Shown in pieces: positions 1,253-38,939 of a stretch of DNA of 64,000 nucleotides (its first letter is position 1; the number at the start of each line of letters is the position of its first letter). The stretch spans positions 46,815,293 to 46,879,292 of the forward strand of contig OZ024927.1 in NCBI GenBank assembly GCA_964017235.1. The letters run 5' to 3'. This stretch comes from Sabellastarte sp. h YS-2021. Lineage: Eukaryota > Annelida > Polychaeta > Sabellida > Sabellidae. The position numbers were made by a program, and so were the translations under genes. Below the pieces are notes generated by a model. That model worked only from the letters and a program-made list of their open reading frames with translations, did no database searches and was not told the origin of the DNA.

Positions 1253-4200
1253 TCACTCATTTTCACTTTCGGCAAAGTCATTAAAGTTGCTGTCCAGGTC
1301 AGAACACTGTGAAATATCAGAATCTATGAAGTCTTTAGGTTCAGCATCTGAAAAACAAAGTTCGTCAGAAATATCAGAAGTGATAATATTGATAAATTAT
1401 CAGAAGTATGTGACCTTAATCACATGGATATTGGTAGCCAACCTTTCGTTACTCTGGACCCTGGGTAGTTGTGGCCAACATTAGGCCTCTCTTACTCTGG
1501 ACCTTTGTCAATGGTGGCCAACATTAAACCTCTCTTATTGTGGACCTTTTTGTTAATAAAATTACACATTTACACTGAATATAATAAAATTTTACTCCAG
1601 TCAATACTAATTGCAAATTACTGCAAGCAGGCTTTAAATCTAAGGTAGGTAAAATATTTGACATTCACATTAAATCTAAGGTAGGTAAAATATTTGCTAT
1701 TTTGAGTAAAATTATGCAAAACATTCTAGATTTTAAGCACTTACCCATATCCGACTTATCAGTCTCTGGGTTGACACTATGGGCAGCAGCAGCCGCAGCA
1801 GCACCATCTGCCTCTTGTTCTGCCAATGTGCTGTTTCTGTCTGTGCGCCTGGCTCTGCTAGAAGACGAATTCCAATAATGAATGGCCTGACAAGGGTCAA
1901 AATCAGCAACTTCAGGTGAGTGTAGCTTTATTAGTATCAAGTCACACAGGGATGAGTTACCCATTCTGTTACGGTACTCGTTCTTGATAATCTTCATTTG
2001 GTTGAATCCACGCTCACACACAGCAGAGCTTGCAGGTAGGGAAAGAAGCAAGTCAAAGAGCTGCAGGCAGTTGGGAAATGACTCTTTGTACATTTTGTTG
2101 ATTTTTTCCCAGGTAAGTGGAGTTGAATCTGAGTGGATTTCATTTTTGTGGTTTTCATACAGACTTTTTTGAAGTAATGTCCACTCAGGCTGAATATCAG
2201 GCAGGCTGCACACTTTATCAAGTCGCTCACCAAAATGCTTGCAGAGGATTTTGATGTTTTCATCGCCAAAATCTTCGTGGAAATCAGAGGGCCAGGTTTT
2301 CAAATTAGCTATCTTGGTACTGGCAAGTAAACCATCACTGATGTCACTAAATCTTTGCTCAAGACACATAATGACAGCAGTAACTACTTCAGTGTGTTCT
2401 TTGTTGTATTGATCTAAGTTGCCTTTTAGATCCACCCCACAGTATTTGGCGTCAGTGACCACGGAACAATCGTCATCCTGAACTTTGCTCAGAAAAAACC
2501 CAGGGGTTGTCAAGAATTTGCGGATCAATAGCAATGCCCCTTGAAGAGAATCAAAGCATTCATGAATGCTGGCATCTTGACGTTGCCATGTCAGTGACAC
2601 CTTAGACAGTGTAGAAAGTATGTCATGGAGAAGATGACCGAAGACAATCACATCTTTTGCAACCAAGGCCTTGTGAAAATTCTTTGCCTTTGATTGTAGA
2701 TTGCCGGGCCCATTGCCAATAGCAACCTAAAACATCAGTTAAAAAATTAGCATTGACAACTTGCACATCACAACGGTGAGATGGGATGAAAAGTGGGATG
2801 TACAGATCAACTATACTATCACAGATACTAATTGATCATATCAATCACACCAGGGCCCCTATCAAAATACTGTGTGGTGTTTATTGTATGTTTTATTGTT
2901 AGAACAATTACTGTCAATAAGTTTATTTCTAACAGTACTTTTATGGCACTTAACCTCCATCAAAAGACAGAATCTAGGGCACAACACAACAAAAACAGAA
3001 TTCAATATTTGTAAGCCAGAGACATTGCAGGGGTCAATGCCCCAGAGAAAACAAGGAAAAAAAATGAAAATTAATGTGGGTATGCTTTTTCAAAAGGATA
3101 GGTTTACAAGAGTAAACATAATTTCTTAATATACCAGTTCATCAAAGGGTTAAAGACTTTACAATACCTGACTCAGGTGCATTTCCAGAGCAGGATAAGC
3201 ATTCCAAAGTGGATTCAATGCCAAAAGTGTATGGGACACCCAACGAGTCCCACCAACTCTGAGTGGAACAGCAAAGGGACTCTTGGTTGCCTCGGCAGCT
3301 TGCTTTAAGTTCTGTCGTTGTAAGGCACTTGTGTGATAAAAGCCATAAAGGCCTGACAGCAAAGACATGATGCGACTGTACAATTTTGACTTCTTCATAG
3401 CTGCCTTGTAGGCCAGTTCAAGGCGATGAACTAAGCATCTTACCATGACAATGTCAGAGTTCAAATTTTTCCTCATTATGGCAATAACGCCACCTTTTTC
3501 ACCTGTATTAACTGAGGCTCCATCCGCTCCAAATCCAACAACTTTACTCAAGCTATTTTGCAAATTGAAGTCGGGAAATGCAATTGAAATGCCTTTGCGC
3601 AAAGCTTGGTATATATGATCAGCATTTGCCCTTTCTACTGCAACAATTGCCAAAAAAAATACATGTATGGTCCCCTCTATAGCGAAACGTGCAAAAATTA
3701 TTTCATTTTCTTTAACAGATATGTCTGTGCTCCCATCGGACAACAATGTCACAAATTTGGCTTTTTCAAATAAACCTTCAATTTTCTTTCTTTCTGTGGC
3801 GGCAATCGCTCTGATAAATTCTCGGCAAGATTTATCACTGCGATAGGTGTTGCCAATGACAACGCCTTTCTTTTCATCGACCTCACAAATCCATTGGAAA
3901 TCAGTGTATGGCCTGCAGTTTTTAGCAATTCCATGTGCAGTGCGAAATAAATTTTCCAATTTGTCAAACGAGGACTTATTCAACATTTGAATGCATTGCT
4001 CAGCTTTGGAGCTGCCTGGGGGTTGTCTTTTTTTTTCAAGTTCAAATTTGGCAGTTTGATGGCCTTCACTTTCATGATGGACTTTCACCACACTCAATTT
4101 AAAATTTTTGCAGCCACCAGTAACAAAAGGGCCACCAATATACTTTGAAAATTTATCTGGTACCACAATTGACTGTTTAACTTTTGACTGGCTCAAATGC

Positions 4201-4409
4201 CCAAAAATGGCTCTACAAGTGGTACAAAACATTGCATTATTGCCTTGGTCATACAAAATCCAGGGGTATGACTTCACCCAGGAAGCCTGAAATTCCCTTT
4301 TTCTGATATTTTTTTCATACTCCCTTTGCTTTTGAAGCCGGTCTGTCTCTGAAATTTTGGGCTTTTTGGGATTGGAGCCTAGATCTAGGTTTGTTAGGTA
4401 TTTGTCCAT
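1253..4409 (-). CDS. ZNF862-like TTF zinc finger / hAT transposase-derived protein, three exons
   Basis: Exons, 5' to 3' on the minus strand, are 4409..3168, 2726..1745 and 1347..1253. The junctions are CAG|GTATTG to TTTTAG|GTT (phase 0) and ATGG|GTAAGT to TTTTCAG|AT (phase 1). They give one open protein of about 772 residues. Order of parts: a TTF-type zinc-binding segment (W near 44, CTTC near 62-65, paired His near 110); an RNase H-like hAT core with SDGSTD and FGADGAS; then the hAT dimerisation block containing SAVCERGF in exon 2; a Ser/Arg/Ala-rich linker; and an acidic tail ending ESENE. Such proteins are hAT transposases or host genes derived from them, with DNA binding in the nucleus expected. 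Introns, intact frame and an acidic tail favour a host gene, but terminal repeats were not excluded. An in-frame ATG at 4508 would add 33 mostly hydrophobic residues. I prefer Met at 4409, which begins MDKYL. Confidence 0.8.
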
Positions 4410-4513
4410 GTCAATTGCACAAGTCTGTATCAGGTGATTTAGTAGAATTTTGATGAAATAAAATGCGCCAAAAGCAATACCGGAAGCTATGAAGCAACGA
4501 GACTTCATCTTTA

Positions 4514-4556
4514 AATCTCGAGGTCCGCGAGATTTCCGCGAGATTTCCTATCGCGA
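4514..4556 (-). promoter_or_regulatory. Candidate CGCG-box promoter of the hAT-like gene
   Basis: Just upstream of the gene the minus strand carries two tandem copies of AAATCTCGCGG plus a CTCGAGATTT and a TCGCGA. They resemble the TCTCGCGAGA promoter motif known from many TATA-less animal genes. The local CpG content stands out in AT-rich surroundings. Motif identity and use as a promoter are inferred. Confidence 0.45.
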
Positions 4557-5435: not shown

Positions 5436-7620
5436 AAATCACTTATAACTTGAAAAGTGTTGCATTTAGAGCATTTTGTTAAAATATGTTGTTCAGCTAC
5501 TTTTTCCATAGCTACAACATGGTGAGTAACTTGGGTGTCTATCTCAATAGCTAACTGAGTAATAGCTACTTTTGGGCTTTTCAGTAACTTCCATCATGAT
5601 TAAACTCACTTGTAACTTGAAAACTATTGCATTTAGAGAATTTTGTATAAATATGTTATTCAGCTACTTTTGGGTCAGCTATAACATAGTAAAATTTCAG
5701 ACCTGTAGCTCATGTCACAGCTGAGTAATAGCTACTTTTAGGTTATCACTGTTGAGTAAATCACTTATAACTTGAAAAGTATTGCATTTAGAGTATTTAG
5801 TTTCAATATGTTATTCACCTATTTTGGGGTCAGCTATAACTTAGTGACGTTCCAGACCTGTGGCTCATTGCATAGCTGAGTAATAGCTACTTTGAAGTTC
5901 TCACTGTTAAGTAAATCAGTTGTAATTGGAAAACTATTGCATTTACAGAAATTTGTGTAAATATGTTATTCAGCTACTTTTGGGTCAGCTATAACATAGT
6001 GAAGTTACAGACCTGTAGCTCATAGCACAACTGAGCAATAGCTATTTTCAGATTATCACTATTGAGTAAATCAGTTGTAACTTGAAAACTATTGCATTTA
6101 CAGTGTTTTGCTTAAATATGTTGTTCACCTACTTTTGAGTCAGCTATAACATAGTAAAAATTCAGACATGTAGCTCATTGCATAGCTGAGTAATAGCTAT
6201 TTTCAGGTTCTACTATTGAGTAAATCAGTTGTAACTTGAAAACTATTGCATTTGGAGAATTTTGTATAAATATGTTGTTCACCTACTTTTGGGTCAGCTA
6301 TAACATAGTAAAATTTCAGACCTGTAGCTCATTGCATAGCTGAGTAATAGCTACTTTGAGGTTATCACTGTTGAGTAAATCACTTATAACTTGAAAATTA
6401 TTGCATTTTGAGTATTTTGTTTCATGTGTTATTCACCTATTTTGGGGTCAGCTATAACTTAGTGAAGTTCCAGACCAGTGGCTCATTGGATAGCTGAGTA
6501 ATAGCTACTTTGAAGTTCTCACTGTTGAGTAAATCAGTTGTAATTGGAAAACTATTGCATTTACAGAAATTTGTGTAAATATGTTAATCAGCTACTTTTG
6601 GGTCAGCTATAACATAGTGAAGTTACAGACCTGTAGCTCATGGCACAACTGAGAAGTAGCTATTTTCAGGTACTGACTGTTGAGTAAATCAGTTGTAACT
6701 TGAAAAATATTGCATTTGGAGTATTTTGTTAAAATATGTTGTTAGCCTACTTTTGGGTCAGCTATGACATAGTGAAATTACAGACCTATAGCTCATGGCA
6801 TAGCTGAGCAATAGCTATTTTCAGGTTCTCACTATTGAGTAAATCAGTTGTAACTTGAAAACTATTGCATTTGGAGAATTTTGTATAAATATGTTGTTCA
6901 CCTACTTTTGGGTCAGCTATAACATAGTAAAATTTCAGACCTGTAGCTCATTGCATAGCTGAGTAATAGCTACTTTGAGGTTATCACTGTTGAGTAAATC
7001 ACTTATAACTTGAAAATTATTGCATTTTGAGTATTTTGTTTCATGTGTTATTCACCTATTTTGGGGTCAGCTATAACTTAGTGAAGTTCCAGACCAGTGG
7101 CTCATTGGATAGCTGAGTAATAGCTACTTTGAAGTTCTCACTGTTGAGTAAATCAGTTGTAATTGGAAAACTATTGCATTTACAGAAATTTGTGTAAATA
7201 TGTTAATCAGCTACTTTTGGGTCAGCTATAACATAGTGAAGTTACAGACCTGTAGCTCATGGCACAACTGAGCAATAGCTATTTTCAGATTATCACTATT
7301 GAGTAAATCAGTTGTAACTTGAAAAATATTGCATTTACAGTGTTTTGCTTAAATATGTTGTTCACCTACTTTTGGGTCAGCTATAACATAGTAAAAATTC
7401 AGACATGTAGCTCATTACATAGCTGAGTAATAGCTACTTTGAGGTTATCACTGTTGAGTAAGTCAGTTATAACTTGAAAACTATTGCATTTAGAATATTT
7501 TGTTTAAATATGTTATTCACATAATTTTTGGTCAGCTATAACAAAGTGAAATCGCAGACCTGTATGTCATGGCATAGCTGAGCAATAGCTACTTTCAGGT
7601 TCTCACTGTTGAGTAAATCA
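5436..7620. repeat. Tandem array A, unit about 154 bp, four-unit higher order
   Basis: About fourteen diverged units each carry TTGAAAACTATTGCATTT, GGGTCAGCTATAACATAG and AGCTCATTGCATAGCTGAG. The spacing of the phrase GAGTAAATCA is about 154 bases. A block of about 600 bases starting near 6241 recurs almost exactly near 6860, a shift of 619, so four monomers were duplicated together. No coding role is apparent. A single unit of the same family appears at about 26680-26857. Confidence 0.9.
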
Positions 7621-8828
7621 TTGTATCCACTGGATAGCTGCAGTGTGTAGAGAGATTTCACCATTACCGCTCTAACGAAAAAAATATTATAGCTAGCCTT
7701 CTCAAGTTTGCAGAATATATGAATAACCATAAAATGTTGCCTGGGAATATTTTTGGCCTCATTTTGAAAAACAAGATGGCTGCCAGGGATGTTTATTCGA
7801 CTTCAAACAAGGATTTTTTTGGCCCTCTAGAGCAAAGGATATTATGGATAGAGATCTTAAATTCGCAGGATATGTTCCTCATTATAAAATCTTGACTGGG
7901 AATGTTTTTGGCCTCATTTTGAAAAACAGGATGGCCGCCAAGGGCATTTCTTTGTCAGTCATGAAAAGTGCTTATATCTCCCTTATTATTGGTCCTAGAG
8001 GTTTGGGATGGTAAACCAACCTGTAGGAAATCATGGGCTGGGAATATTCTGGTGTGGTCAGATATGACCTTTGATCCCTCCTTCAAGGTCAAACAAGGAT
8101 AGCTAAACTTAAAAGTGTTTATAACTTGCTCATTATTGATCCTAGAGGTTTGGGATGGTAAACAGACATATTGGAATCATGGGCTGGGAATCTGTTGATG
8201 TGGTTCGATTTAACCTTGGACCCCTCCTTCAAGGTCAAACGAGGAAAGCCATACTTAAAAGTACTTATAACTCATTTATTATTGGTCCTAGAGGTTTGGA
8301 ATGGAAAACCAACCTATAGAAAATCATGGGCTGGGAATCTTTTGGTGTGGTCGGATTTGACCTTGGACCCTGCCTTCAAGGTCAAACGAGGATAGCCAAA
8401 CTTAAAAGTGCTTATAACTCGCTAATTATGGTCCTAGAAGTTTGGGATGGTAAACAAAGCTATAGGAAATCATTGGCTGGGACTCTATTGGTGTGGTCAG
8501 ATTCGACCTTGGACTCCTCCTGCAAGGTCAAACAAGGATAGCGAAACTTAAAAGTGCCTATAACTCGCTTATTGGTCCTAGAGGTTTGGGGTGGTAAACC
8601 AACCTATAGAAAATCATGGGCTGAGAATCTTTTGGTGTGGTCGGATTTGACCTTTGGACCCTGCCTTCAAGGTGAAATGAGGATAGCCAAACTTAAAAGT
8701 GTTTATAACTTGCTTATTATGGTCCTAGAAGTTTGGAATGGTAAACCAACCTATAGGAATTCATGGGCTGGGAATGTTTGTGTGGTTGGGTTTGACCTTG
8801 GACCCCTTCTTCAAGGTTGAACGAGGAT
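7621..8828 (+). repeat. Repeat-B element inserted in array A
   Basis: Array A stops at 7620 and resumes at about 8829 (TTGCATTTGCAGTATTT). The inserted part starts TTGTATCCACTGGA, has a unique head similar to 60127-60560 (including AAACAAGATGGC), then about six repeat-B units carrying GGTCCTAGAGGTTTGGGATG, GGAAATCATGGGCTGGGAAT and TTCAAGGTCAAACGAGGATA. Unit length is near 147 bases with small indels. Confidence 0.8.
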
Positions 8829-9120
8829 ATTGCATTTGCAGTATTTCTTTAAATATGTTTTAACCTACTTTTTACACTAAAACAGTTACCTTGTTACTTT
8901 CCTTTATAATACCATTTGCAGGGCACAACTTTTTTGTCCTTCTGTCAGCTTCGAAATTTCTTTCAAACATGCTGTTCAATTACCATTTACTGTACTTCTG
9001 TACAGCACTTTCCCTTATAATTATGCTTTCCTCTCATTATCACCTTCACAAATCAAAAACACTCACTCAGCTGACACAGTGCCCGTGAACGGGCACTCTA
9101 CTCTTGTTATTCATTTTTAC
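8829..9120. other. Array A remnant and short spacer
   Basis: The first 60 or so bases match the interior of an array-A unit. The rest is AT-rich and unremarkable. No gene signal is seen. Confidence 0.5.
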
Positions 9121-10003
9121 CCCACACCACGTAAGGACTGTTGGGGTATTGTTTTCACCCATGGTGTCCAGGTGGGAAAAAGTTTGTCCGGGCTGTATCT
9201 CAGAAACTGTAAGGTGTAGGAAGCTGATACGTGGTAGGGACATTGGTTAGGGAGTGTAGGTGTGCAATGTCATGGTCTGACCTTGATTTGACCTTTGATC
9301 TTGCTGTAGTGACCTTGAGTTTGAAAATCTTGTCTGGGCTATATCCTGGGAACCGAAAGGTGTAGGAAGTTGATACTTGGTAGGGACATTGGTTAGGAGG
9401 TGTAGGTGTGCAAGGTCTTGATGTGACTTTGATTTGACCTTTGGCCTTGCTGTAGTGACCTTGACCTATAAAATCTTGTCCGGACTATACCTCAGAAACC
9501 GTAAGGTGTAGGAAGTTGATGTTTGGTAAGGACATTGGTTAGGGAGTGTAGGTGTGCAGTGTCATTGTGTGACCTTGATTTGACCTTTGACCTTGCCGTA
9601 GTGACCTTGACCTATAAAATCTTGTCCTGGCTATACCTTAGAAACCATAAGGTGTAGGCAGTTCATACTTAGTGGGGACATGGGTTGGGGGTTGTAGGTG
9701 TGGAACGTCATGGTTTGACCTTGATTTGACCTTTGACCTTGCTGTAGTGGCCTTGACCTATAAACTCTTGTCCAGGTTATATCTCGGAAACTGTAAGGAG
9801 TAGGAAGTTGATACTTGGTAGGGACATGGGTTGGGGATTATAGGTGTGCATTGTCATGGTGTGACCTTGATTTGACCTTTGATCCTGCTGTAGTAACCTT
9901 GGCTTTTAAAATTTTGTCCAGACAATATCTCTGAAGCCGTAAATTTTTTCAAGTTGATAGTTGGTAGGGACATTGCTTAGGGGTTGTAGGTGTGCATCAT
10001 AAT
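9121..10003 (+). repeat. Tandem repeat C, about six units near 147 bp
   Basis: Units repeat TATCTCAGAAACCGTAAGGT, TTGGTAGGGACATTGGTTAG and GTGACCTTGATTTGACCTTT. The landmark CTCAGAAAC and its variants fall at about 9194, 9343, 9490, 9637, 9780 and 9928. A diverged array of the same family lies at 55500-56470. Many units contain TGACCTTTGACCT, which reads AGGTCAAAGGTCA on the other strand. Confidence 0.85.
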
Positions 10004-10007
10004 TTTT

Positions 10008-10510
10008 AAGTGGGTTGCGTGTAACCAACCCGCCTCTTAGATTGATGTGTACAACGTCCGTCTGTGCGCCACATTTTTCGTTTTTGGACTCTTAACTCAA
10101 AATAGTTTGTCCAATCCAATTCAAAATTTACAGGGAGATAGATCAACATCATAGCTAGGTTCCTTTCGAAATTGGTAAAATTCCATCTGTTTGTTTGTCT
10201 GATTTTTGTCCGTGTGTCCATCCGTCTGTCCACATTTTCGAAACTCGAAAACGGTTTGTCCAATCGAATTCGAACTTGACAGGGATATAGATCACCATCA
10301 TCGCCAGGTTCCTGTCAAAATGCTTGTAATTTTATCTGTTGATTTGTCCGTTTTTTGTCTGTCCATCTGTCCATCCACATTTTTGTTTCCGGATTCTAAC
10401 TCAAAAACGCTTTGTCCAATCGAATTCAAACTTGACAGACATATACATCACCAACATAGCTAAGTTACTTTTGAAATTGGTGTAATTCCGTTCTTTTGTT
10501 TGTCCGTTTA
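10008..10510 (+). repeat. Short tandem array with hairpin head, about three units
   Basis: It begins with a hairpin (GGGTTG, 8-base loop, CAACCC near 10013-10032). Three units of about 150 bases follow, each with GTCCGTCTGTCC-like runs, TTTGTCCAATCGAATTC, and GACAGGGATATAGATCACCA. Reading frames here are repeats, not genes. Confidence 0.75.
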
Positions 10511-11946
10511 TAGCATAGATACAATTATGTAACCTAGATTACAAGTTTTAAGTTTCTCAGCACGTCTAATACATTCACCTTAACTGGGTAACCTGATATT
10601 TCTTTCCTGGTTTCTAAATGTAATTACAGCAGTTGCTAACCTTATTGCTGCCTGCGCAACCTGCCTTTTGGGGCATCTTTGACCATCTTGTTAGTTTACT
10701 GGTTAATGCTGTCATCTTGCTATTGAATTGTCTTCTTTTAATACTTTATCTTTACATACATTTTCTTTCACTTAGATATTATTTTCTCTATGTAAACATC
10801 ATTTGGACCTTTTTGTAGCTGACACTGCTCTGAAAGTATCCCGATCTTTGTACTGTTTCACTACTTCTATATCTCATGGTATTGAAAACAATTTCCCCCA
10901 GCTGTGGGGTATCTCTGATACTATTTTTTCAATTAAAATCTAAGGGTGCATAATTTTTTACTGAATGTGTAGATACACATCCAATAATAAATAACATTGA
11001 TGATAAGCTTCATATTTCCAAAATAAATGGTTTTGAGCAATTTTCTAGCAAGTTGTTAACCTCTACCATTGTTAAGTGAGATTCCATGTGAGGTGAGAGA
11101 TACGCAAGATGAGGTCCATCTGTGATAGAATAGAAGTTTACTGTAAATATCTTAACGATATTATGAGTAGTGTGAAATTATAATGAGCACACTGGTTAGC
11201 AGTAACCTGCTGACAGGTCAGTAGTTACAAACCCGACCAAGTACTGTACATACTTCATCATGTACATGTATTTGTATTTACCACTTTTACTCTGATTTAG
11301 GAATATGTATACATCAATATGTTTTACTAGGTGTTGCATGAAATTATTGTAATCAGTTGAATATTTTCCTTCAAAGTGGTGGCTTGTTTAATATGAGCTT
11401 TTATTTTAACCAGTGCTTAAAAGTAATCACAAAGTATGGTGTTCATTATCCTGGTTGTCTGTGTTTGATCTTGCATTTAACCCATATGCAGCTTAAACAT
11501 TTTCAACTAGAATCTTAAGTGACCATATTACTTTATGATCATAGTTTCATGATGTTTGCACAAAACCTGCATCCTCATTATGTAAAATTTTACTGGTGAC
11601 AATATTACAAAATCAGTATTTTACCTCACAAGGAAACTTGGATGTGCCTGTGTAAGTGATACTTTTCAACATGTTAAGCCCCATGTGTGTAACATACATT
11701 AAAAAGAGGCATCAGAAAAGATTTTTGGATATCTTCACTTTCCATGTGTACTGACTGGAGGTCAAAAATATATAACAGAGGATCTGCTTTGTCATTTAAT
11801 TTCAACAAAACCAAAATTTTGCTCTTGAGTTTGATAAATTTATCTTAGTGTGTAAATTCCTTTCAAGAAAATGTTAAAGAATTAATCAGGGAATAAAAGA
11901 GAGCTAGGCATGGTTGAGACAGGAAGTACTTTGTATTCTTACTCAG
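10511..11946. other. Upstream region of the helicase-like gene; 5' exon(s) not resolved
   Basis: AT-rich sequence. The first recognised exon of the next gene needs an upstream exon ending in phase 2, if translation does not simply start at 12002. I could not pick a convincing ATG-bearing exon here. Confidence 0.4.
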
Positions 11947-14900
11947 GGATGATGAACTGGAAGAGTATTGCGAAGAGTACAGTGAGCAAGAAAGTGTGGA
12001 GATGAATGATTTCAAAGAAATTGGCTTGAAACCTGGATTAATAGAAGCTGTGAAGAATGCTGGGTTTGAAAATGGTTCCGACATTCAGAAGAAATTTCTC
12101 CCCACTGCAATAAAAGGACAGGATTGCATTGTGCAGGGAAAGTCAGGAACAGGAAAAACTAGTGCATGTGTATTGGCAGTACTTCAGCAGCTCCCAGAGA
12201 CAGATGATGGGCAGGTGAAAGCATTATTCCTGTGTCACACAAGAGCCATCTGCTACAGTATTGCTGCAGAAATGAGGAGACTAGCCAAGTCCATGTACAA
12301 AGTAAGGGTAGCCACCTTTTATGGTGGTGTGCCCGTGAAAGAGGATTTGAAAACCCTGAAGGAGCTTAGACCAAATATAGTCATTGGAACACCAGGAAGG
12401 GTTTTGCAGCTCATGAAAGATTCAGCCTTATGTCCAGCAGAGTTGATGCATTTAATTATTGACAACTGTGACCATTTTCTCACAAACATAAGCCTGCGAA
12501 GAGATATCCAGGAAATATACAAGATGCTGCCAAAGGACAGGCAGGTTCTACTGGTGGCAGTGACCTTACCAAGAGAACTAAGACCTCTCTGTAAGAAGTT
12601 CACTCGAAATGTGCAAGAAATTTATATGGAAGATGTGGATCTGGTTCACCACAATCTGAATCATTATTTCCTCAATGTAGACCATACGGGAAAGAATAAA
12701 GTGCTGGAAGATGTGTTGGATGACATTTCTTTCAAGCAAGTCATTATATTTGTGAATTCAGCTGAAGCATGTCAGGAGTTAAGTAAACATCTAAACAGCC
12801 AGTGCTTTCCAGTAAAAGCAATACATCATTTACTACCACAGGTTGAGAGAGATTTCAGATTGCAACTGTTTATTGATTTCCTTTCTCGTATTCTGGTGAC
12901 CACAGATGCCTTGAGTCAAGTTCAAGTTGGACATAATAACAACTTAGTTATAAATTATGAGATGCCCAAGACTACAGAAGCACTTTTGCACAGAGTAAAC
13001 AAAGCGGTGTCATCAGCCAGCAATCCAGGAGTTGCCATCACATTTGTATCTTCTGAAGCAGACAAAAAAATGTTGCATTCCTTTCAGGAGAGATTCATGA
13101 CACACGTGCATCATTTCCCATCTGCTAATATTGTTTGTGAAAAACTTAAATCTCCCCCGTTTGCTAGGTAAGACTCTACAGTAAATAGTTAACATAAGTT
13201 ATAACTAAAATGTTTATCATGGTTTGTCTTTGTTTTTCTGTTCATTTCAACAGAAAAAAAACACAAACTGGTTAAACTTACTACTAAATTTAAATACAAA
13301 AGTTTAAATTCCTATTAAAATGTTTCAGTTTCATTCAGTCAAATACATGCATAAGTACAGGAGATTGTAAATGCCGAAATGATTTTTTCAGTTGTATCTA
13401 CCCCAACATTAAATTCCCCATTGTATATATCTCTGATTTTTATTGTGGTCCTTAAGGAGTCAGTTTACAATGAAGCTCCTAATGGCTGGTTTGTTTTTAT
13501 ATTTAAATAATATTTTAGGTTCTCTCAATCAAAGAAGAAAGAAAAGGAAAGGGATAAAGCCTCAAGTTCAGATGGCAAGGGTATTGAAAATGAGTACAAA
13601 GCCCCACCTGTGTAAGTCAATGTTATTAGAGTAGAATAGTTTACAATGTTCGGTCCCCCAAAGCTCCCCAAAAGACAGAGACACAAGAGACTGAGGAATC
13701 TAGTATGTATTAATATGCAATAACAGATGTGTATACATGTATGTAAAACTCATGAGCTAAACTACTTTAAATTTACATATCCCAAAGATTACACATGAAT
13801 TAATAAATCCTGCACATTACATAAATAACCCTTAAATACAGAAATCAGCAACCAATATTAAATAACTGAGTATACATTTAATGTTAATACCAATTTCACA
13901 TCTTTCACTAGAAATGAATCCAGTTTATTACAATTCAGAAACTCAAAAACACTTATAAACTACAGACTGAGTTTAGAATTGAGATTTTAAGGCATCTAGG
14001 GAACACCTTGAGTAAATATTAAAATTTAGATAAGAAAACTTATCTGAAGTGAACCCAACTTTAAGCAAAAAATTATTTAGAAAGAATTACAGTGAAGCCT
14101 GACAAGGATAACCAGGTAAAACGCAACAAGGGTTAACTTTGAACAATATGATTGCAGTTAACTGGGGCCTAAGACAGGTAGTTTACTGGCTATAACACAT
14201 TTATTTTATACTAACCAACATGAAAGTATGATTATTGGGCAGGAAGGGTGGGCAACAAATAATCTGTATAGTCCAGGGCCAGTATTCATAAAACTTGCTG
14301 AGAATAAATTTTGTCTCAAGTGTCAAGTTTTTTGGTCTCAAATCTGAGACTGTTTTTGGTCTCAAACTTGTTAGTTATTCACAAAATAGTTGAGACCAAA
14401 TTTAGTCTCAGATTTGGGCTCAAACCTAAGACTGGTATATAGTTGTCTCAAATATTTTGGTAAAAGTCTCAAGCATTATTCCACCTTAACCGAGATTCAT
14501 GTTTTTACTTTTTATGGCTTAATGTAAAGTAGAAATAATTTACAACATATATAATACTTGGCCTAAACTTTTGTAACAATGGATATCCCAAACTTTGGTT
14601 TCAAAAGTACCTTACTTTGAGACACTTTTTCAACAGTGTTTTCTGACTTCATAGCCACAAAGAAGTAGATCATGTGATATGAAAAATAAAAAAAAAAACA
14701 CTTGACACAATTTTCTATTTATTTTTTTTATTTTAATAGACAGTATAATTTTTGTTAAGAATTAAAACACACACAAACTATTGATCTTTAAAAATATGTT
14801 GGATATATTTGCAAGTTTATGGTTTGTTTACATTGGAAAGACTTGAGACTGGTCTCAGCTGGGTCTCAGCTGAAAACCTGTTTGTGAATACAAAGCTGAG

Positions 14901-17900
14901 AATATTTTTTGTCTTAGACTTAAGATGTCTATGGATGAATAAGATAAATAAGATGAATATGGTCCCCGGCTCTCAAGTTTGAATGAAACTTAATTCCCAG
15001 AAGAGAACCCCAGTTTAAGACTCCACCAATCAGGTGCTGTGAAACAAGTTCCTAGAAATGACCCCAATGTGACCTCATGAATATTCATAAGTGAATTCAT
15101 GCCAGAAACTAGTGATCTCCCAGCCACCAATATTAGAGTAGAACATTTTATAATGTGAAATGCCCCACTGAGGAAAATTTCTTCACATGATTTTACTGAA
15201 TAATGGGTTGGAACTAGTATTTTCAAATTTATGACATTTTGTGACAAGCTTATGCTTTACATAATGTATTGCAATATGTTTGTGAATTTGGTTTCATAAT
15301 ACTGGGCTCTTATATAGTGCTTTGTCTATTATAAGCTCAAAGTGCTTTACGTAGTATTACCCCAGCAAGGATAGCTAGCCTTGTTGAACTTACCTTTTGC
15401 TGCCATGCAAGGCGCAGAAGCCAGTATCCCTTATAGCTGGGTACCCATATTTCCCCTGGCTGAAGAGGGGCACAGTCCAGGTTGACATCTTGCCCAAGGA
15501 TGTTATCCCACATGAAACAGTTGGCATCAGTGGGGATCAAACCCATTACCCTTGGATAATGAGTTGAACACCCTATCTACTGGGCCGCATGAGACCCTGA
15601 GTACTTGTGTTTTAAGTCAGAAAACAGTGATGGTCCCATAGAGAATTGTCATACATCATAGTACAAGTTTTAGTTCTAGTAGTACCAGTGTTGCATTTAT
15701 ACCTACAATATTATTCTAGAATTTGTGAATATGGGACAGCAAAACAGTGTCACTTGGTTCCAGTTACAGCATAGTTTGACTCTCTCTGGTTCTGCTTGTA
15801 TATGGGTTTGTTGACACTAAGTCTGCTGTATATATTTTAGCTTGCCTGATGGGAAAAAGAAGTCTAAGAAAAAGAAAGCCTTTACTTCCTTGTATGATGG
15901 GGAAGACCTCAGAGAATGTGGGCTCATTGACAATTATTTGGAAGATGATGCAGGCATCGACCTGTTCGTGTCAGATACTTATGCGGTCATGGCCGGCACT
16001 GCTAGTATGTACAGATACATAGTAGTATTTCCTGTTTTTATAAACACATGGCTCAAATCACTATTGCTGATGTTTGACTGATAGCAAACTTTAGTGAAAA
16101 CTCTGTGAAAGCAAAAATTTTCCATTTGAGTATCGGCATAAAATCAGTGTGCTAATGTTAAAATACTGAATGTCTTGGAAAGTGGAAAATGTGATTATAA
16201 AGCCATGTAGACTGTTTGTATGTTTAATTAAAAGCCGTACCCAAAGTTAGAGTGAAAAATGTAAAATTTGACATGTATCTGAATTTGCCACACATGGAAA
16301 TACTAATGAAATAAATTAACTTAGGTGAGATATATTGAATGTATAGTAAGTTAAAGGCTTTTTAAACTGACATATACTAAGTTTAAGACAAGCCATGGGG
16401 AGTTTTACATTTTTGACGAATTTTTTATTCCTTCTCTATGCATACTTTTTGTGCCAGAAGTATGTTATGCATCACAAAATTGACAGAAAAATGCAAGTTC
16501 AAAATTATCAAAGGACTAGTTTGGTCGCCATTTTAATAAATATGTCTTTCACATAAAAAATTCACAAGACTACCTGTTTTTGCTGGTATTATAGGTATTG
16601 TGTGTAGGTTCAGCCAGAAATGAGGTAAATGTAATATAATGTGTGATTTATTATGATTTACTGCATCAAAGAAAACATTTAGTGGACCATGGTTATTTAC
16701 AGTCTATGGTTTCATGCTATATTTTGTTTGAATATAACTTGGTGAGGTCTTTCTTGTTATTTAAAGGGAAAGCCAGACAGGACACAGAGAGTGAGGGTTA
16801 TCAAAGTGATTTTAGTTCTGCCTCAGTACAAGACTATCGTATAGCTTTTGGTGTTCCCAAACTTTCATCTGAAGATATCCAGAAATTGTTTGAACACCGA
16901 AATCAAGTATGGAATATTTTCTACTGATTTAATAGAACAGCTGAACCTCTGTTGTCTCAACATCTTTTATTTAAATGTTCACTTTTATAAAAGCTTACCC
17001 ACTCTTTCGAAATTTGTATTTCCCTTTTGTGATAAACTAAAAGACTTCTTCTGTTTTATTAACATTCTGTTATATGACTTATTTTGTTAATGTCAGAGCT
17101 AATTGATTGACAAACTAGTGGCTGACATAAAAAAAATAAGAATTCCAATTCCAATGTTAAAGAAGTTTCAGGTAATTTTACTACCCAGAACTGTAATTTT
17201 CCTAGATAAGCATGAGCTGAGAAACCTCCTAAGATCTCATTAACATAATGCTTCAAAGCCTTGATTTTAATGGGCATTTGTTTTTGAATTCATGTCAACA
17301 GTTTTGTCAGAGTACTACTGTAACAATAAAGAAGAGTAAAAAATTCTTACAGAAATCATTCAGAGTAATGAGAAAAAATACTTTAGTTAGATTATACTGA
17401 AGAAAACTGCAATAAAGTAAGTTTAATATATCTTGTCCATCTATTGTTAAAAACAGACCTTGTATTATTGTCACAGTTGGGCTACTGGGAATTCACTGAC
17501 AACAGCATTTGTATGGGACTTCTGAAAATATCCTGGCTTGAGTGCAACAAACTTCTCAAAGATGCTGGCATCATGTCATTAGGTCAGTACCTGTTCAGTT
17601 CTTTTCTGTGTCTAAAGCAAGAAACATTTTCTTTCTGTAATTACATTATTATGTAATCATTGTTGTGTATAAACATTAATCATTTTTCAAAATTCATTAT
17701 CAGCCAGTCATAAACCAGAGGCACTTGGGAACCAAGGTTGTTTATTTCTAAGGTAATTGAAAATGAATGAAGATTCTCGGTGGCCTAGTGGTTAGCAAGT
17801 TTGGCATCTAATCACAGGCTATCACCTCTGTGTGGGTTCAACCCCCACAAGTGGCAGTGCCAAGGGCCTATTCCAGTACGACCTTTGCTCTTGAATAAAA

Positions 17901-19945
17901 TGTAAAACCCTAAGCTTTGACATTAAAATGAAGTGGCTTTTGTTAGACATAGGTATCTTGCTCAACAAGTTTTTCACCGTTAATTGTCCAAATAATATTA
18001 TTTGGAATAGTTTGGCCCAACTGTTAAAAAGTAAGCTGTCACAATACATCAGTTTTCAATATGGGTTTTAACAAGACAGATTTCTCATTGGATAGGGGAC
18101 CAGATCAGGGGCGGCAGGGGTCGAGGGGGGATAGGCTAGTCTGAATAGACAAGTCTTCAATTGTTGTCTAATCCCAGTGACACTATTCCAAGTTCAAGAA
18201 GCAAGAAATTTTTGGAGTTATTAAACTTCATTTCAAATAAAAAGTAAACAAGGCATTAAAATATCCAAAACTAGTATATATTTTATTGTTTTGATGAAGT
18301 ACCAGTCATTAGAAACCCTATCTTTTAATAACTAGTCCATAAATATTCTTTACAGATTTTGCCATTTCTATGACATTGACATAAAACTGGACTAGCACTT
18401 TAACATTCACACCACTAGGTGAAAGCTAAGGGCTGAAATGCCAAACCTGTTAACCAGAAGTCCACTGTGGCTTCTTGTACCAGTCACTTACTGTAACTAT
18501 ATCACATCACTGTTCCGTTGATGTTATACAGTTAAAGCTCAATCTTTTAGGTTGTGTGGCACAGAAAACCATTGAGCATCTAGTGGTCACACTGCTTGTA
18601 CTGGCACGCATACTACAAGTGCATTTACCCCAGTTCTTGGAGGGAGATTTGCTGGATTATCCAGAGACCAGCAGCTTCTTTGTAAGTACACAAATTCAAA
18701 GTGCATTTTCTGGCTTACATTTATAATCCTACATACCTTTGTGTGGAAATAGTAATGGTAATAGTGTACATCCTCTGAAGCATTCCAGGTAAACTTAAAA
18801 AAAAAATTGAAAGTAAAAGTTTATCCTTGTTTCAGGAAGTTTGATAGAATATCTAGACCTTACAATGGTGTTGCAATGTCTGCATTGTTCAAACATTATA
18901 TCCTTGATACACTGTTGTGAATTTACCTCCCAACTCCCAACTGTGTGAATGTAGTGGCCATGGTAACATTACATGTCAGTTAAGCTGTAAATGTCGGGAG
19001 CATAATTGTGGTGATCATAGATGCTTGTCCCAAATATTAAACACATTTCATAATCTTTGTGAGTGGGAATTTTTCTGTCCTGAGCACTCACGGCTGATCA
19101 TTTTAATTGCAAGTCTTCACGGAGCAACAAAGGATCTTTACGGTGACACCATTAAAGGTGTCCACTCTTCTGCAAAAGATGAGGGCAAGAGTTATGTTTA
19201 GGAGCTGTACAAGTTGGGAGCAATATTATTTTTTTCTGGCTTATGATATTTCATTAGGGACTATTCACCTTTATTTTCAGTAGTCCCACACTATGTCAAT
19301 AGGATCAGTCACGGCAGTCCTGCCCACACCTCTGACTAGGTCTTATGGTAAATCACACAAGTGGGATAGCATTATTGCACTGAATTTGAGAGGATTTTTT
19401 GTCCTTAATAATAATAATATCTACAGGTGTTTAAGTATTTGGCCAAAGTTCCTGCTTCATCTCTACACCCCCACTTTATCACATGACTGAAGAGTCTGTC
19501 TGGTACTATGGGTTCCCATATGGAAAGATTTTTGTGCCAATAGTCATACTCCTTCCAGTAAAGCCTGACAACAATAAATTATGTTTTAAACAAAATTCAA
19601 TATCCATTTCTTAGAGCGCCATTCTCATTTAACATTACTCCTTTTTGGGTATTATTGGTCAAGTTAAAGTGTTTTCGTTCAAATCGTGCAAGGTTTGATA
19701 TGAAAACCTTTGATTATTTTCTACAGCATGAAGCCATGGAAAAAATCAAGGAGAAATGGGGAGACCTAAAGTCAGACTTAGCCCACAAATTATCCATTGA
19801 AAACCAGAAAAAGCTAGAGGAGACAGGGGAGTGGTGTTGTATGGTACTACAGCAGTACCCAATGGTTTACTCCACCCTGGAACTGGGCAAATCCTGGTCA
19901 GATGTGATGAGGAAGTGGCTGGAAATACCACAGAAGTGCCTGTAA
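11947..19945 (+). CDS. Degenerate DDX39/UAP56-like DEAD-box protein fused to a vPARP INT-like domain
   Basis: Seven exons keep one frame: 11947-13167, 13519-13611, 15841-16004, 16767-16906, 17477-17582, 18551-18681, 19727-19945 (about 690 residues; first ATG in frame at 12002). All introns have GT/AG ends. Exon 1 aligns along the UAP56/DDX39B core from an acidic DDELEEY start through FKEIGLKPGL, Walker A GKSGTGKT, CHTRA, GTPGR and VIIFV. Motif II is DNCD, motif III is AVT, and motifs V and VI have lost the usual residues (HRVNKAVSS instead of the HRxGRxGR type). Nucleotide binding may persist, but helicase activity is doubtful. Exons 2-4 encode a Lys-rich then acidic linker. Exons 5-7 resemble the PARP4 C-terminal vault-binding domain. 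The gene could act in RNA handling or as vault cargo, both inferred. Any upstream coding exon is missing from this model. Confidence 0.8.
14270..14972. mobile_element. MITE-like element in intron 2
   Basis: The ends are imperfect inverted repeats: GGGCCAGTATTCAT at the left and ATGAATATGGTCCCC at the right. Inside there are inverted stretches of TTTGGTCTCAAATCTGAGAC and its complement, and both ends carry a CTGAGAAT plus TTTTGTCT/TTAGACTTAAG motif. No coding capacity is seen. The family is unassigned and the exact boundaries are soft. Confidence 0.5.
15295..15594 (-). mobile_element. tRNA-derived SINE, minus strand, intron 2
   Basis: On the minus strand a tRNA-like head shows an A-box-like TAGATAGGGTGTTCAACTC and a B box GGGTTTGATCCCC. 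A body of about 200 bases follows, with a tail containing AAAGCACTATATAAGAGCCC and ending in an ATTAT-type terminus. This is the usual layout of a SINE whose tail matches a LINE 3' end. Confidence 0.75.
17768..18060 (+). mobile_element. tRNA-headed SINE-like insert in intron 5
   Basis: The head reads GGTGGCCTAGTGGTTAGCAA (A box) and GTGGGTTCAACCCCCAC (B box), spaced as in a tRNA gene. The acceptor arm does not pair and unrelated tail sequence follows, so this is a SINE and not a tRNA gene. The right end is uncertain. Confidence 0.55.
19427..19486 (+). other. Possible alternative terminal exon
   Basis: After TCTACAG a phase-0 frame reads 19 residues (starting VFKYLAKVP) and then TGA. It would fit the donor at 18681 as well as the exon at 19727 does, and would end the protein before the last half of the INT-like domain. 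It may be a cryptic site only. Confidence 0.3.
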
Positions 19946-20737
19946 AGATTTGGCGGGGCAACAATTTATCTGAACTGTAGACTTCATACAACTGAAATAA
20001 AACTGAGAAATTGGTGCCTTCAGATTTACATGGCCTGTCCCAATCCAACTAGTGTTGGTATCGAATAAAAATATTTATATCAATATCAAATGAAAAATAA
20101 ATGAAATATCAGGGCATGAGATGCTTTCCAGGGGAGACCTTCCAAACTCTTTCGCAATGTTTAGTAGGTTCCTGAAACATAAACAAATATGGCATTTCCG
20201 CTTTAGCGGTAATTGAAAATTAACAAAAATAATGTGAAAATCAATATATTCTTAAATATTGTCCTTTATTTGATTGAAAAACACCATAGTTGTACCTGTT
20301 AACTAGTATGTTTTGATATTGATATTGTACTCTACATTATTGATATCGTCAAGCTTAGCATGAATCGATAAATATTTCACTATCGATAAACAATACCAGC
20401 ACTAAATCCAACCTTAGCTGTTGAGAAACCCAAACTTGATACAGCTTGGTTAAATTGTCATGGGAATCCACTGTGTGAATTAATATTTGAAATCGAAGCA
20501 TTGTCTCCAGGTCATTCTTGTGTACATAATTAGTTGTATAATATTGATAAATAGTGCAGAATTTCTTTGGCTTGTATTTCATAAGTGGATTTTGCCAAGG
20601 CATTAGGCTGTATTGTGTGGAGTATTAATAGTTATAAGAATATATAAATTATTAATGTAATTGCTGATGTAAGCTGTGCTGTAATTAATGTTTTCTATAA
20701 TTCACAGTGAGAGAGAATAGTCTTTAAAATGTTTATC
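19946..20737 (+). other. 3' UTR and flank of the helicase-like gene
   Basis: An AATAAA lies at 19996-20001, only 50 bases past the stop, and another AATAAA follows near 20064. The rest is AT-rich without gene signals. Confidence 0.5.
19996..20001 (+). promoter_or_regulatory. Candidate polyadenylation signal AATAAA
   Basis: It lies 50 bases after the stop codon of the helicase-like gene. A second copy near 20064 is a possible alternative. Confidence 0.5.
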
Positions 20738-21379
20738 TAATACCCCTTTCACACTACAGGTGATCTAACCTGTAGTTATAGGTGTTGGACAAACTGCCCC
20801 TGTATTTCAACTAGTGCCCGACATCTGTATGCGAACTTGTGAGACACTGGCCCACCATACCATTCCTTCAGCGCCCCGCAGAAGTTTTGAAATGTTCAAA
20901 ATTTCTGCCTCTGAAGCCCTAACTGTCAGTCACCATCAATCAGTGTCTCTTGTCTGCGCTACCATCCTCCCTGTGTTCATGCGTGTCCATCCCTGTTCCG
21001 TGTCCATCTATTTTTCATTGACTTTCTGTAGATACGTTTTTCATACGGTAACTGAATGTGAAAAAAAGGTATGACTCACACAGTGACTGATGGGACATCG
21101 GGTGCAACTGTCAGCAACAGTAGCATGACAATAGTACAAATGTTTGTCACTGAGAAGCAACCTCTATTAACCTCTATTCACCTTCTATAGCCATGGGATG
21201 AACACCTGATACCAAAACAAGAACGAGTCACAACCAACTATAAACTGCAGACACAATCGTGACACCACAGCAACCATAATGTGGGTGCATAAAATCTTGT
21301 AAGATATGAGGCATCTTGGGAGGTGGTCCGCTACCAAGTAAAACTTCTAACCGTGGGGAATAGTGTGAAAGGGGTATTA
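20738..21379. mobile_element. DNA element with perfect 19-bp terminal inverted repeats
   Basis: The left end TAATACCCCTTTCACACTA (20738-20756) is the exact reverse complement of the right end at 21361-21379. The interior of about 600 bases is non-coding. The outer TAA/TTA could include a TA or TAA target duplication, so a Tc1-like or Harbinger-like origin is possible. The superfamily is not assigned. Confidence 0.75.
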
Positions 21380-26262: not shown

Positions 26263-27450
26263 ATCCCCAAAAAGCGGGGATACTATGGATCACGCACGGT
26301 CATCGTCCGCGTACACATCCTGAAGAGATTTTCTTGTGTTCAACCTACAAGCCACATTTCTTTTGGGATTTCTTTTAAACTTTGCAAGTGGCTTACTATG
26401 GCAGAGGTCTGGCCACCCTATTGTTTTGGTAGGCCAGGAGTCAAAATTAGGCTCTGGGGAGTCAGAAATATCTAAAATTTTGACTATTGCTTGTGTTCAA
26501 GCTGTAGTGCACAGTTTCTTTCAGATTTATTTTATAGTTAGTGCATGAATTGGTGGGTATGACATCTCGCCACCCTATCTTTTTTGTAGCCATAGGGTCA
26601 GAATCAAGCGAAAAATAGCTTTTTTAAGCCCAGGAGTCAAAATTACGCTCTGGGGAGTCAAAAACATCAATAATTTTGACTTGTAACTTGAAAACTATTG
26701 CATTTAGAGAATTTTGTTGAAATATGTTATTCAGCTACTTTTGGGTCAGCTATAACATAGTAAAATTGCAGACCTGTAGCTCCTTGCATAGCCGAGTAAT
26801 AGCTACTTTGACGTTCTCACGGTTGAGTGAATCAATTGTAACTTGAAAACTGTTGCAAAAGTGCTTAAAACTCGCTTATTATTGGTCCTAGAGGTTTGCA
26901 ATGTGAAATCAACTTATAGGAAATCATGGGCTAGGAATCTTCTGATGTGTTCAGATTTGACCTTGGGCCCCTCCTTTGAGGTCAAACTAGGATAGTCAAA
27001 GTCAAAAGTGCTTATAACTCACTTATTATTGGTCCTAGAGGTTTGAAATGTGAAACAAACATATAGGAAATCATAGGCTAAGAATCCTCTGTTGTGGTCA
27101 GATTTGACCTTGGCCCTCTCCTTCAAGGTCAAACGAGGATAGCCAAACTTAAAAGTGCTTATAACTCGCTTATCATTGGTCCTAGAGGTTTGAATGTGAA
27201 ACCAACCTACAGGAAATGCATCTTCTGATGTGGTCGGATTTGACCTTGGGGCCCCTGTTTTTCAAAAATGTGGGAACTTTCCAAGGTTTGAACTTTCGAG
27301 GGATTTCTATACATTTTATCCTTTTTATAGGCCTCCTTGAAGGTGAAACAACATTTCTAAAACCCTAAACTGCCTTGACCTCTTTTGTTATTGCTTCTAC
27401 AGGTTTGCTATGTTCAGGGATACACTGCCGGCTCGCAATAAAACGAGCGG
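26263..27450 (+). mobile_element. Hairpin-headed A/B satellite element nested in the old DIRS
   Basis: It starts at TTGTATCCCC with a hairpin (GTATCCCC, 7-base loop, GGGGATAC), a unique part, then one unit of array-A type (about 26680-26857) and about three units of repeat B (26858-27250). DIRS RNase H sequence is present on both sides, which defines the insertion. The right boundary is approximate. Confidence 0.65.
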
Positions 27451-28902: not shown

Positions 28903-30957
28903 ATGGATTCACCAGGAGAAAAGAAAGGACAAAGGCGGGGGTCATGTGGCCACGTTATGGCCGCCTTTGATTTGCACAAGAAATGCGCGCGCTGTCACGA
29001 TAAGGGCATTGGGGATGACCTTGTGTTAAAGACAAACAGTGTAGTGTGTGCGATTCCTTCTCTGATGAACAAAGGGAGTTGATTTCTACCCCATCTTCTA
29101 GAATTAGAAAAGACCGTAAAGCAGGTATTTTAGTTTCCCCTAAAGAAGTTGAAGTCATTGCTTCCGTGGATTCTTCTGCCGAGCCAACTTTTGCTGCCCC
29201 TCCTCAGAGTACCTCCCAACCTGCCACCTTTGTTACAGCAGAACAGTTTTCTTTGATAAATGGGCAGAGCAATTTGCACGTGTAGAAGCCTTGTTGAGCA
29301 GAGGCAATGTTTTCTCCACCCCCAAGTGGCGGTGAATCCTTCAAGTTCAAAAGCTGTGCCTTCTGATTCCCCCTTTATTGCCCCGGCTGCCCGGCCCACC
29401 GGTCCGGTGGAGACCCCGGCAGTGCAGGAGGCTGTTGTTAAATCTGGGGAGGATAAACCCAAGAAAACTAGAGACAAAAAACACAAGAAGTCAGTCAAAA
29501 TATCTGATAAACCAGTTTCCTTGGATAAACCGGTCCCTGCCTTGGGCACCTCCGGTCCGGAGAGTGTAGCGCAGGCTACAGTACAGAAGAAAGCTCCTCC
29601 GGCATCTTCAATCACCCTTACACCGGAAGATGACCAAGCCGGTCCTGCTGGTGACCTGTTTATGACTAAGTCTTCAACATCATCCTCAGGCTCCGCCTTC
29701 CCCGGTACCTTCAATCTTCCACCGGAACCGGACGACTTTGATTTTGATGACCCTTTGGCCGGTTCTGATGTGTCGTCTATTCACTCTGACTCTAACGAAG
29801 GTGAGATTTCCTCTGATACTCTGGAACATCCAGAACAAACCGAAGAGATGAACTACAGAGAAACTGTAAGGTCGGTTCGTTCCTTCATGGGGTGGACTCA
29901 CATACCGGACTTTGAAAGTGACTTGAATGAGCCGGATAAATCCAATAACCCTTGGAAGGGTAAGAATCCTAAAAGGCCTGCCCGTATTTCAGTTGAGATG
30001 CCGCCGGATGACTGGCTCTGCCAGAAGTTGGAGCGACTCAATACAGTTGTGGCGGAAGGCTACCCTTCAAGGGCCCAAGACTCGGCCGGACTGAAAAAAG
30101 ACCAGTTTGTGAAGATCCCCAAGTCACAGGCAAGATGGTACCAGATGTATACCATTAAACAAGATGGCCCCCACAGACCGGGTAGAAAACTCTTCAGTTG
30201 GCATAATACCAAAGCGAAACTTAATTCCCAGTTTCCAAGGCTTACTAAGGCTTCGGCCTATCCAGCTGCAGGCCCTCCGTCTAGGCCCATTTCCCAGGAA
30301 TACCTCAGAAGGTGGGAGAAGTGCGCTAGAGAGAACTCGTATATCATTAACAATGCTGCAGGGTTCAACCGGTGCGCTAGTGAGTTGCAAGATAAAATGT
30401 CTAGTAATGTTGCCATGTTATGTTCCCGCATCAACAAGGGCAAAGCCCCTAAGGAAGTGTCTGGTGCCCTGAACGACCTCAAGGACCTTATGGCTTTTCA
30501 CCAAAGTGTCTCTGTTGCCATGGGCACGGCTTTGCAACATCTCGCGGACAGTGTGTTTGTGCATCTTGCTAATCTTATCTTGATCCGACGTGATGCTTAT
30601 CTAGAACATATGAAGCCTGGTGTCAAGCAAGATACATGGTTACATCTTAGAAATGCTCCAATGTTTGGCTATGGCCTCTTTCCCGACACAGTCATTGCCA
30701 CTGCTGAACAGGATATCATCAAGCATGAGGCTTCCGGTACTGCTCTGAGACCCGGTCCGGGTGCTTCACAGCAGTCCGGTTGGAGAACAGCCAACAGATA
30801 CCGGCCTTATGACAGAAGGGATCAAAGATCTGCGGGTACGGAACAAGAACAACAACCCTGGAGGCAATTTAGTAGGCCTAGGAATAGGGGACGTGGCAGA
30901 GGAAGAGGTTCTAACCCTCGTTTCTCTCGTTCCAAGGGATATAAAGGTTTTAAATGA
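28903..30957 (+). other. DIRS copy 1 ORF1 (gag-like) region
   Basis: A Cys/His-rich start (CGHVMAAFD, CARC), a long Pro/Ser/Lys-rich stretch, a conserved central block also present in copy 2 (DDWLC, AGFNRC, RRDAYL) and an Arg/Gly-rich end. This matches the structural ORF1 of animal DIRS elements. It is a fossil and not claimed to be functional. Confidence 0.8.
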
Positions 30958-32830: not shown

Positions 32831-32849
32831 GCAACCCAGTTCACATGGT

Positions 32850-38930: not shown

Positions 38931-38939
38931 AGACTCCAC

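What the first reader, a model, noticed from the sequence alone, without database searches (positions are those of the whole stretch)
11947..19945. A UAP56-like helicase core joined to a vPARP-type vault-targeting domain
Seven exons keep a single frame from a DDX39/UAP56-like core to a C-terminal domain whose landmarks (GYWEFT, KDAGIMSLG, TLLVLARI, YP..YSTLELGKSW) follow the PARP4 INT domain in order. INT is the signal that sends vPARP into the vault particle. I know of no described protein with this pairing. If right, it is a new vault cargo linking vaults to RNA or mRNP handling. The alignment is from memory, not a search.
Basis: partly seen in the sequence, partly recalled or inferred. Interest (0 to 1): 0.9.

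Follow-up and report, generated by a model that had tools for sequence, protein, structure and literature searches.

The report
Dead helicase with vault-binding-like tail
An animal gene appears to join a worn-out copy of an mRNA-export helicase to the tail that sends another protein into vault particles, which would make it a new kind of vault passenger if RNA and binding tests confirm it.

Summary
The gene model holds: seven exons (11947-19945, +) with GT-AG introns give one open frame of 690 codons; the start lies in an unseen upstream exon. Exon 1 is a UAP56/DDX39B-class core (E 7e-95; 157 of 378 aligned positions identical), but dead by sequence: DECD is DNCD, SAT is AVT, motifs V and VI are lost; Q motif and P-loop remain. 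The last 151 residues match the human PARP4 vault-binding (INT/MVPID) domain (BLASTP E 4e-8; 0 of 20,000 shuffles). PARP4 is also first among 177,635 PDB sequences, but only at E 0.046 (reversed control 0.15). Against vault binding: Arg1689, centre of the conserved INT patch, is Thr668 here. New: the exon 1 donor overlaps an in-frame stop (AGG-TAA-G), so unspliced RNA would end near where UAP56 ends. My reading: a UAP56-derived pseudo-helicase used as a vault-tethered dock for mRNA-export factors. The fusion is likely; vault targeting is plausible but untested. No relative was found in the collections searched, which hold no animal genomes, and transcripts could not be searched.

The parts
11947..13167 (+). 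Exon 1: UAP56/DDX39B-derived pseudo-helicase core, residues 1-406
   Evidence: PDB phmmer E 7e-95 to DDX39B; 157 of 378 identical; catalytic motifs degenerate; strong acceptor and donor
11948..11968 (+). DDELEEY: resembles the UAP56 N-terminal TREX-2-binding motif (E9 L10 L11 D12 Y13 in human)
   Evidence: Translation compared by eye with residues named in PMC12823420: 3 of 5 identical
12137..12160 (+). Motif I (P-loop) GKSGTGKT, intact
12461..12472 (+). Motif II DNCD in place of DECD (Glu197 replaced by Asn)
13166..13172 (+). AGGTAAG: splice donor AG|GTAAG that overlaps an in-frame TAA stop (13169-13171)
   Evidence: the only AGG-TAA-G among 293 TAA triplets of the + strand in 10001-21000; AGGTAAG occurs 10 times on the + strand of the whole window
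13519..13611 (+). Exon 2: Lys-rich linker
15841..16004 (+). Exon 3: Lys-rich then acidic linker
16767..16906 (+). Exon 4: linker leading into the INT-like domain
17477..17582 (+). Exon 5: INT-like domain, GYWEFT...MSLG
18551..18681 (+). Exon 6: INT-like domain, helix VTLLVLARI and loop
19727..19945 (+). Exon 7: INT-like domain, EW...QYP...TLELG..W, and stop codon
   Evidence: human INT 1669-1704 finds this exon by tblastn, E 9e-4
19996..20001 (+). AATAAA, candidate poly(A) signal 51 bases after the stop

Best explanation
One chimeric gene. A copy of the mRNA-export helicase UAP56 without introns in its coding part came to lie upstream of exons coding for a PARP4-INT-type domain. Its end codons (AGG-TAA-G) serve as a splice donor, which removes the stop and joins the UAP56 part, through a Lys-rich linker, to the INT-type tail. 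The UAP56 part has lost the motifs for ATP hydrolysis and RNA clamping but keeps much of its protein-binding face: the N-terminal TREX-2 motif and the RecA1 site for C-UBM adaptors such as ALYREF. It most likely works as a non-enzymatic dock: the tail holds the protein on the inner wall of the vault, and the UAP56 part binds mRNA-export factors there. If intron 1 is retained, a tail-less UAP56-like protein would result, so splicing could choose between a free and a vault-bound form. Shown: open frame, UAP56 origin, lost motifs, INT sequence likeness, stop/donor overlap. Inferred: one transcript, origin by retrocopy, vault binding, partner binding, splice choice.
For: Frame and splice sites. 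DDX39B E 7e-95 against eIF4A-I about 2e-51. Motif losses. INT match: with the human sequence read off; human INT 1669-1704 finds exon 7 in the window, E 9e-4. Exon 1 donor at the 99.6th percentile although it sits on a stop codon. No AATAAA in intron 1, one 51 bases after the final stop. Exons 2-4 hold a single Met, residue 488, so an independent downstream gene has no good start. C-UBM site: 3 of 4 identical, the fourth Arg to Lys; TREX-2 contact positions on RecA1 5 of 7; N-UBM site 0 of 3 (positions from PMC12823420 and PMC12216326). Context: trypanosome MVP and TEP1 interactors are rich in splicing factors, U2AF35 among them and U2AF65 by proximity labelling only (PMC12547018, passages).
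Against: Transcripts and animal genomes could not be searched; the collections that could be searched gave no relative. INT residue Arg1689 is Thr668. The blind PDB search gives PARP4 only E 0.046, neither piece passes alone (i-E 61 and 46), and a reversed control reaches 0.15 with an unrelated protein. Human INT 1584-1636 does not find exons 5 and 6 significantly by tblastn (E 5 and 18) and has better chance hits elsewhere in the window (best E 0.85). Intron 1 holds two ATTAAA. The partner-site count is only weakly above the RecA1 background (8 of 11, P 0.047), and such sites are conserved in UAP56 anyway. Foldseek on the exon 7 model alone found nothing. PARP4's published splicing link is said by its authors to be independent of the vault (PMC11265163, abstract).
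Confidence: 0.45

Rival explanations
1. The fusion is real, but the tail is a VWA5A-like or diverged INT-fold domain that does not bind MVP; it is an ordinary protein-interaction domain and the protein is not vault cargo.
For: Arg1689, centre of the conserved patch of PARP4 MVPID and suggested by the authors as a possible MVP-binding site, is Thr668 here; VWA5A has a similar fold without that Arg (PMC10450202, passages). Identity to human INT is 34 of 144 aligned columns.
Against: Shared QYP, LELG and SLG motifs and C-terminal position.
Confidence: 0.25
2. Two neighbouring genes: a UAP56-like gene with one coding exon that ends at TAA 13169-13171, and a separate downstream gene with the INT-like domain. 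The donor overlapping the stop is coincidence.
For: An in-frame stop sits exactly at the exon 1 end, near where UAP56 itself stops after Arg (UAP56 C-terminus recalled). 347 bases separate it from exon 2, and they hold two ATTAAA. No transcript data.
Against: Donor at the 99.6th percentile; only 1 of 293 TAA triplets in the 11-kb region has this context; phases match; no AATAAA before exon 2; exons 2-4 contain one Met only, in exon 3.
Confidence: 0.2
3. A decaying chimeric pseudogene, transcribed or not, with no function.
For: Helicase motifs are degenerate; the 5' exon is not identified.
Against: 690 codons without an internal stop or frameshift although the core differs from DDX39B at about 58% of aligned positions; chance of no stop in 406 random codons at the window's stop-triplet frequency 8e-11.
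Confidence: 0.08

Closest known systems
UAP56/DDX39B (Sub2)
   Same: Both RecA lobes align end to end at 41.5% identity; Q motif, P-loop, motif Ib, C-UBM site (one Arg to Lys) and an N-terminal ELxxY are kept
   Different: DNCD for DECD, AVT for SAT, motifs V and VI lost, N-UBM site lost; the core lies in one large exon; carries a C-terminal INT-like tail
PARP4/vPARP INT (MVPID) domain
   Same: C-terminal domain of about 150 residues; G(Y/F)W, SLG, LVL, EW, QYP and LELG..W in the same order
   Different: Arg1689 replaced by Thr; longer middle loop; of 12 Pfam families listed for the whole protein at E up to 1, three pass their cut-offs (DEAD, Helicase_C, ResIII) and none is a PARP4 domain
VWA5A C-terminal domain
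   Different: Sequence not available here; the relation could not be measured
Engineered cargo-INT fusions
   Same: A foreign protein placed N-terminal to INT, as used to load vaults (PMC5665922, passages)
   Different: Here the arrangement would be natural

Membership tests
UAP56/DDX39 DEAD-box subfamily | Closest sequence match is UAP56/Sub2 rather than other DEAD-box proteins | tested here: met
   DDX39B 7e-95, SUB2 4e-86, eIF4A-I 2e-51
UAP56/DDX39 DEAD-box subfamily | Intact catalytic motifs (DECD, SAT, motifs V and VI) | tested here: not met
   DNCD, AVT, QVQV for RGMD, HRVNKAVS for HRVARAGR; therefore filed as UAP56-derived, not as an active helicase
UAP56/DDX39 DEAD-box subfamily | Nucleotide-binding elements (Q motif F and Q, P-loop GKT) | tested here: met
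PARP4 INT/MVPID domain | Sequence homology over the domain | tested here: met
   BLASTP E 4e-8, single comparison; 0 of 20,000 shuffles; first PDB hit, but E only 0.046
PARP4 INT/MVPID domain | Conserved Arg at position 1689 | tested here: not met
   Thr668 in the ungapped QYP...LELG segment; Arg1689 named in PMC10450202
PARP4 INT/MVPID domain | All-helical fold like PARP4 1570-1724 | tested here: inconclusive
   Exon 7 alone predicted all-helical, pLDDT 76, but no PDB fold match; the spliced domain was not folded
PARP4 INT/MVPID domain | Binding to MVP | not testable with these tools
   needs pull-down or SPR
PARP4 orthologue | ART catalytic, BRCT, VIT and vWA domains | tested here: not met
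   No such Pfam match at E up to 1 in the 690 residues seen; the missing 5' exon was not seen
VWA5A family | VIT and vWA domains before the C-terminal domain | tested here: not met
   No such Pfam match at E up to 1

The most novel reading that the evidence does not exclude
A natural vault-targeted UAP56 mimic: evolution reused the PARP4 vault tag on a catalytically dead mRNA-export helicase, joined to it through a splice donor that sits on the helicase's own stop codon, so that splicing decides between a free and a vault-bound dock for export adaptors.
Probability: 0.25. Interest if true: 0.85.

Novelty: new variant of a known kind. Interest (0 to 1): 0.6.

Why it matters
Vault function is unknown. 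Passages seen name PARP4 and TEP1 as the minor vault proteins, and describe INT/MVPID as a domain of PARP4 with only a VWA5A look-alike in humans. A natural INT-type tag on an mRNA-export factor would show that the vault address is a portable module and would give a direct, testable link between vaults and RNA export or splicing, at which interactome data from trypanosomes already hint. The stop-as-donor joint would also be a clear example of how a gene copy can gain a downstream domain.

Tried and rejected
Family-model search for INT: the human PARP4 pieces match no Pfam or NCBIfam family at E up to 10, so no usable model exists there. Relatives in prokaryote and viral contigs: tail (viral), human INT pieces (prokaryote), exon 1 (viral) and the tail/human alignment (prokaryote, viral) gave no relative; expected, as these collections are not animal genomes. 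Own genome: none held. Exon 1 fold from one sequence: pLDDT 38, discarded. Exon 7 fold: pLDDT 76, Foldseek best E 8.1, uninformative. Upstream first exon: four ATG-to-donor candidates listed (two of them share one donor), none convincing. Second copies in the window: tblastn with the spliced protein and with DDX39B found none (next-best E 1.7 and 0.43). Rfam (gathering threshold) and ARAGORN: nothing in the window. Literature: searches, judged from listings (titles, starts of abstracts, term counts), show no paper that describes UAP56/DDX39 joined to INT. Limits: one search listed 20 of 26, one search listed 20 of 91 and one search listed 20 of 184 papers; open-licence papers only; five papers listed hold both DDX39 and major vault protein, look like protein lists or reviews by title, and were not opened.
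Full report
What is there. The window is AT-rich DNA (GC 0.39) with an intron-bearing gene, animal-like in look; no genome is held for it. Seven exons from 11947 to 19945 on the + strand, all with GT-AG introns, read as one frame of 690 codons with one terminal stop. Exon 1 begins in mid-codon, so a short 5' exon is missing; four ATG-to-donor candidates were listed upstream and none is convincing. The exon 1 frame (417 codons between stops) is longer than any stop-free run in 100 simulated 64-kb sequences (longest 257).

The N-terminal part. Exon 1 matches DDX39B/UAP56 at E 7e-95, Sub2 at 4e-86 and eIF4A-I at about 2e-51, so it belongs to the UAP56 branch: 157 of 378 aligned positions are identical, 91 of 211 in RecA1 and 66 of 167 in RecA2. 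The enzyme is dead by sequence. DECD is DNCD, SAT is AVT, RGMD of motif V is QVQV, and HRVARAGR of motif VI is HRVNKAVS; Phe381, which in human DDX39B contacts the nucleotide, is Ala. The Q motif, the P-loop GKT and motif Ib remain, so it may still bind a nucleotide.

What the dead core may still do. Residues known from recent structures were read off the alignment. The RecA1 site for C-UBM peptides (R208, Q212, R216, K241; PMC12823420, passages) is R, Q, K, K. The TREX-2 contact positions on RecA1 (51, 66, 83, 105, 106, 135, 138; PMC12216326, passages) are kept in 5 of 7; the paper writes D66 while the PDB sequence shows Glu there. The N-UBM site (R276, A302, E309) is kept in 0 of 3. The N-terminal motif E9 L10 L11 D12 Y13 that binds TREX-2 has the counterpart E-L-E-E-Y at the very start of exon 1 (3 of 5, aligned by eye). 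Taken together, 8 of 11 RecA1 partner positions are identical against a background of 43% (P 0.047). This is weak evidence, because such sites are conserved in UAP56 generally.

The C-terminal part. Exons 5-7 encode 151 residues. A blind phmmer search of 177,635 PDB sequences puts human PARP4 first of 5 hits, at E 0.046, with two colinear pieces on 1584-1636 and 1669-1704, neither of which is significant alone (i-E 61 and 46). The reversed sequence reaches E 0.15 with an unrelated protein, so this search alone does not prove homology. Of 46 stop-free runs of 100 or more codons in the window, of which the last 151 residues at most were scored, only the one that contains exon 7 scores high (62; next 39). 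In the reverse direction, human 1669-1704 finds exon 7 at E 9e-4, but 1584-1636 does not find exons 5 and 6 significantly (E 5 and 18; chance hits elsewhere reach 0.85). The human pieces match no Pfam or NCBIfam family. I take INT-type homology as likely, about 0.85.

Would it bind the vault? INT is residues 1563-1724 of vPARP and binds the inner wall of the vault near the waist; cargo fused to its N-terminus is carried inside (PMC5665922, passages). This gene has the same order, other domain then INT. But the conserved surface patch of MVPID, which its authors suggest as a possible MVP-binding site, is centred on Arg1689, VWA5A has a similar domain without it (PMC10450202, passages), and here the position is Thr668. 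The structural paper on PARP4 in the vault was not held, so contact residues could not be checked.

One gene or two. The exon 1 donor, AG|GTAAG, overlaps an in-frame TAA: read unspliced, the protein ends ...SPPFAR-stop, near where UAP56 itself ends after an Arg (recalled). This allows a two-gene reading, and intron 1 holds two ATTAAA. Against it: the donor ranks at the 99.6th percentile; it is the only AGG-TAA-G among 293 TAA triplets in the 11-kb region, while AGGTAAG occurs 10 times on the + strand of the whole window; the phases match; no AATAAA precedes exon 2, while one lies 51 bases after the final stop; and exons 2-4 hold a single Met, in exon 3. I favour one gene. The stop-on-donor joint also suggests how the fusion arose, from a UAP56 copy lacking introns whose end codons formed a donor, and it predicts that intron 1 retention yields a tail-less form. 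Both are inference.

Context from papers. Trypanosome MVP and TEP1 interactors are enriched in splicing factors, U2AF35 among them, and U2AF65 in proximity labelling but not in the pulldown (PMC12547018, passages). PARP4 associates with hnRNPM and affects splicing, but its authors conclude that its tumour-suppressive role is independent of the vault (PMC11265163, abstract), which does not help the vault reading. TEP1 is reported as an NADase in the vault (PMC13174449, passages).

Verdict. It is a UAP56-derived pseudo-helicase joined, very probably in one protein, to a PARP4-INT-type tail. That it is vault cargo is the leading idea and is untested. In the listings of the searches made I saw no paper that describes the pairing.

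Noticed in passing
1665-4547, - strand: hAT-type transposase remains: C-terminal dimerisation domain (PF05699, E 2.4e-10) and a zf-C17orf113 zinc finger (PF25431, E 1.5e-10) in two long open frames.
   Followed up: partly
29260-33663 and 34655-40053, + strand: Two neighbouring, clearly related retroelements with overlapping long frames; reverse transcriptase (PF00078, E 1.3e-19) and a weak RNase H match in the first; only two frames of the first copy were scanned. They look DIRS-like (recalled).
   Followed up: partly
48682-49209, - strand: GIY-YIG domain frame (PF01541, E 2.2e-7), probably a Penelope-like element (recalled).
   Followed up: partly
52004-52444, - strand: Short frame with a signal-peptide-like start followed by QLTQSLGWGSGGSPGKR, which looks like an adipokinetic-hormone/GnRH-type neuropeptide precursor (recalled). 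No Pfam match; no held paper contains QLTQSLGW.
   Followed up: partly
5597-7625, 7964-8829, 9184-9996, 10069-10509, 26856-27217, 44160-44427, 45734-47132, 57396-58407, 58926-59260, 60519-64000: Tandem arrays (score 300 or more), some of unlike sequence, share a nucleosome-sized basic period of 145-156 bases; one unit (TTATTGGTCCTAGAGGTTTGG...) recurs at four distant places (7964, 26856, 57396, 60519), printed in both orientations.
   Followed up: partly
about 17770-17860: tRNA-like SINE sequence (GGCCTAGTGGTTAG...GGTTCAACCCC) inside intron 5 of the gene, judged by eye; ARAGORN does not call a tRNA.
   Followed up: no
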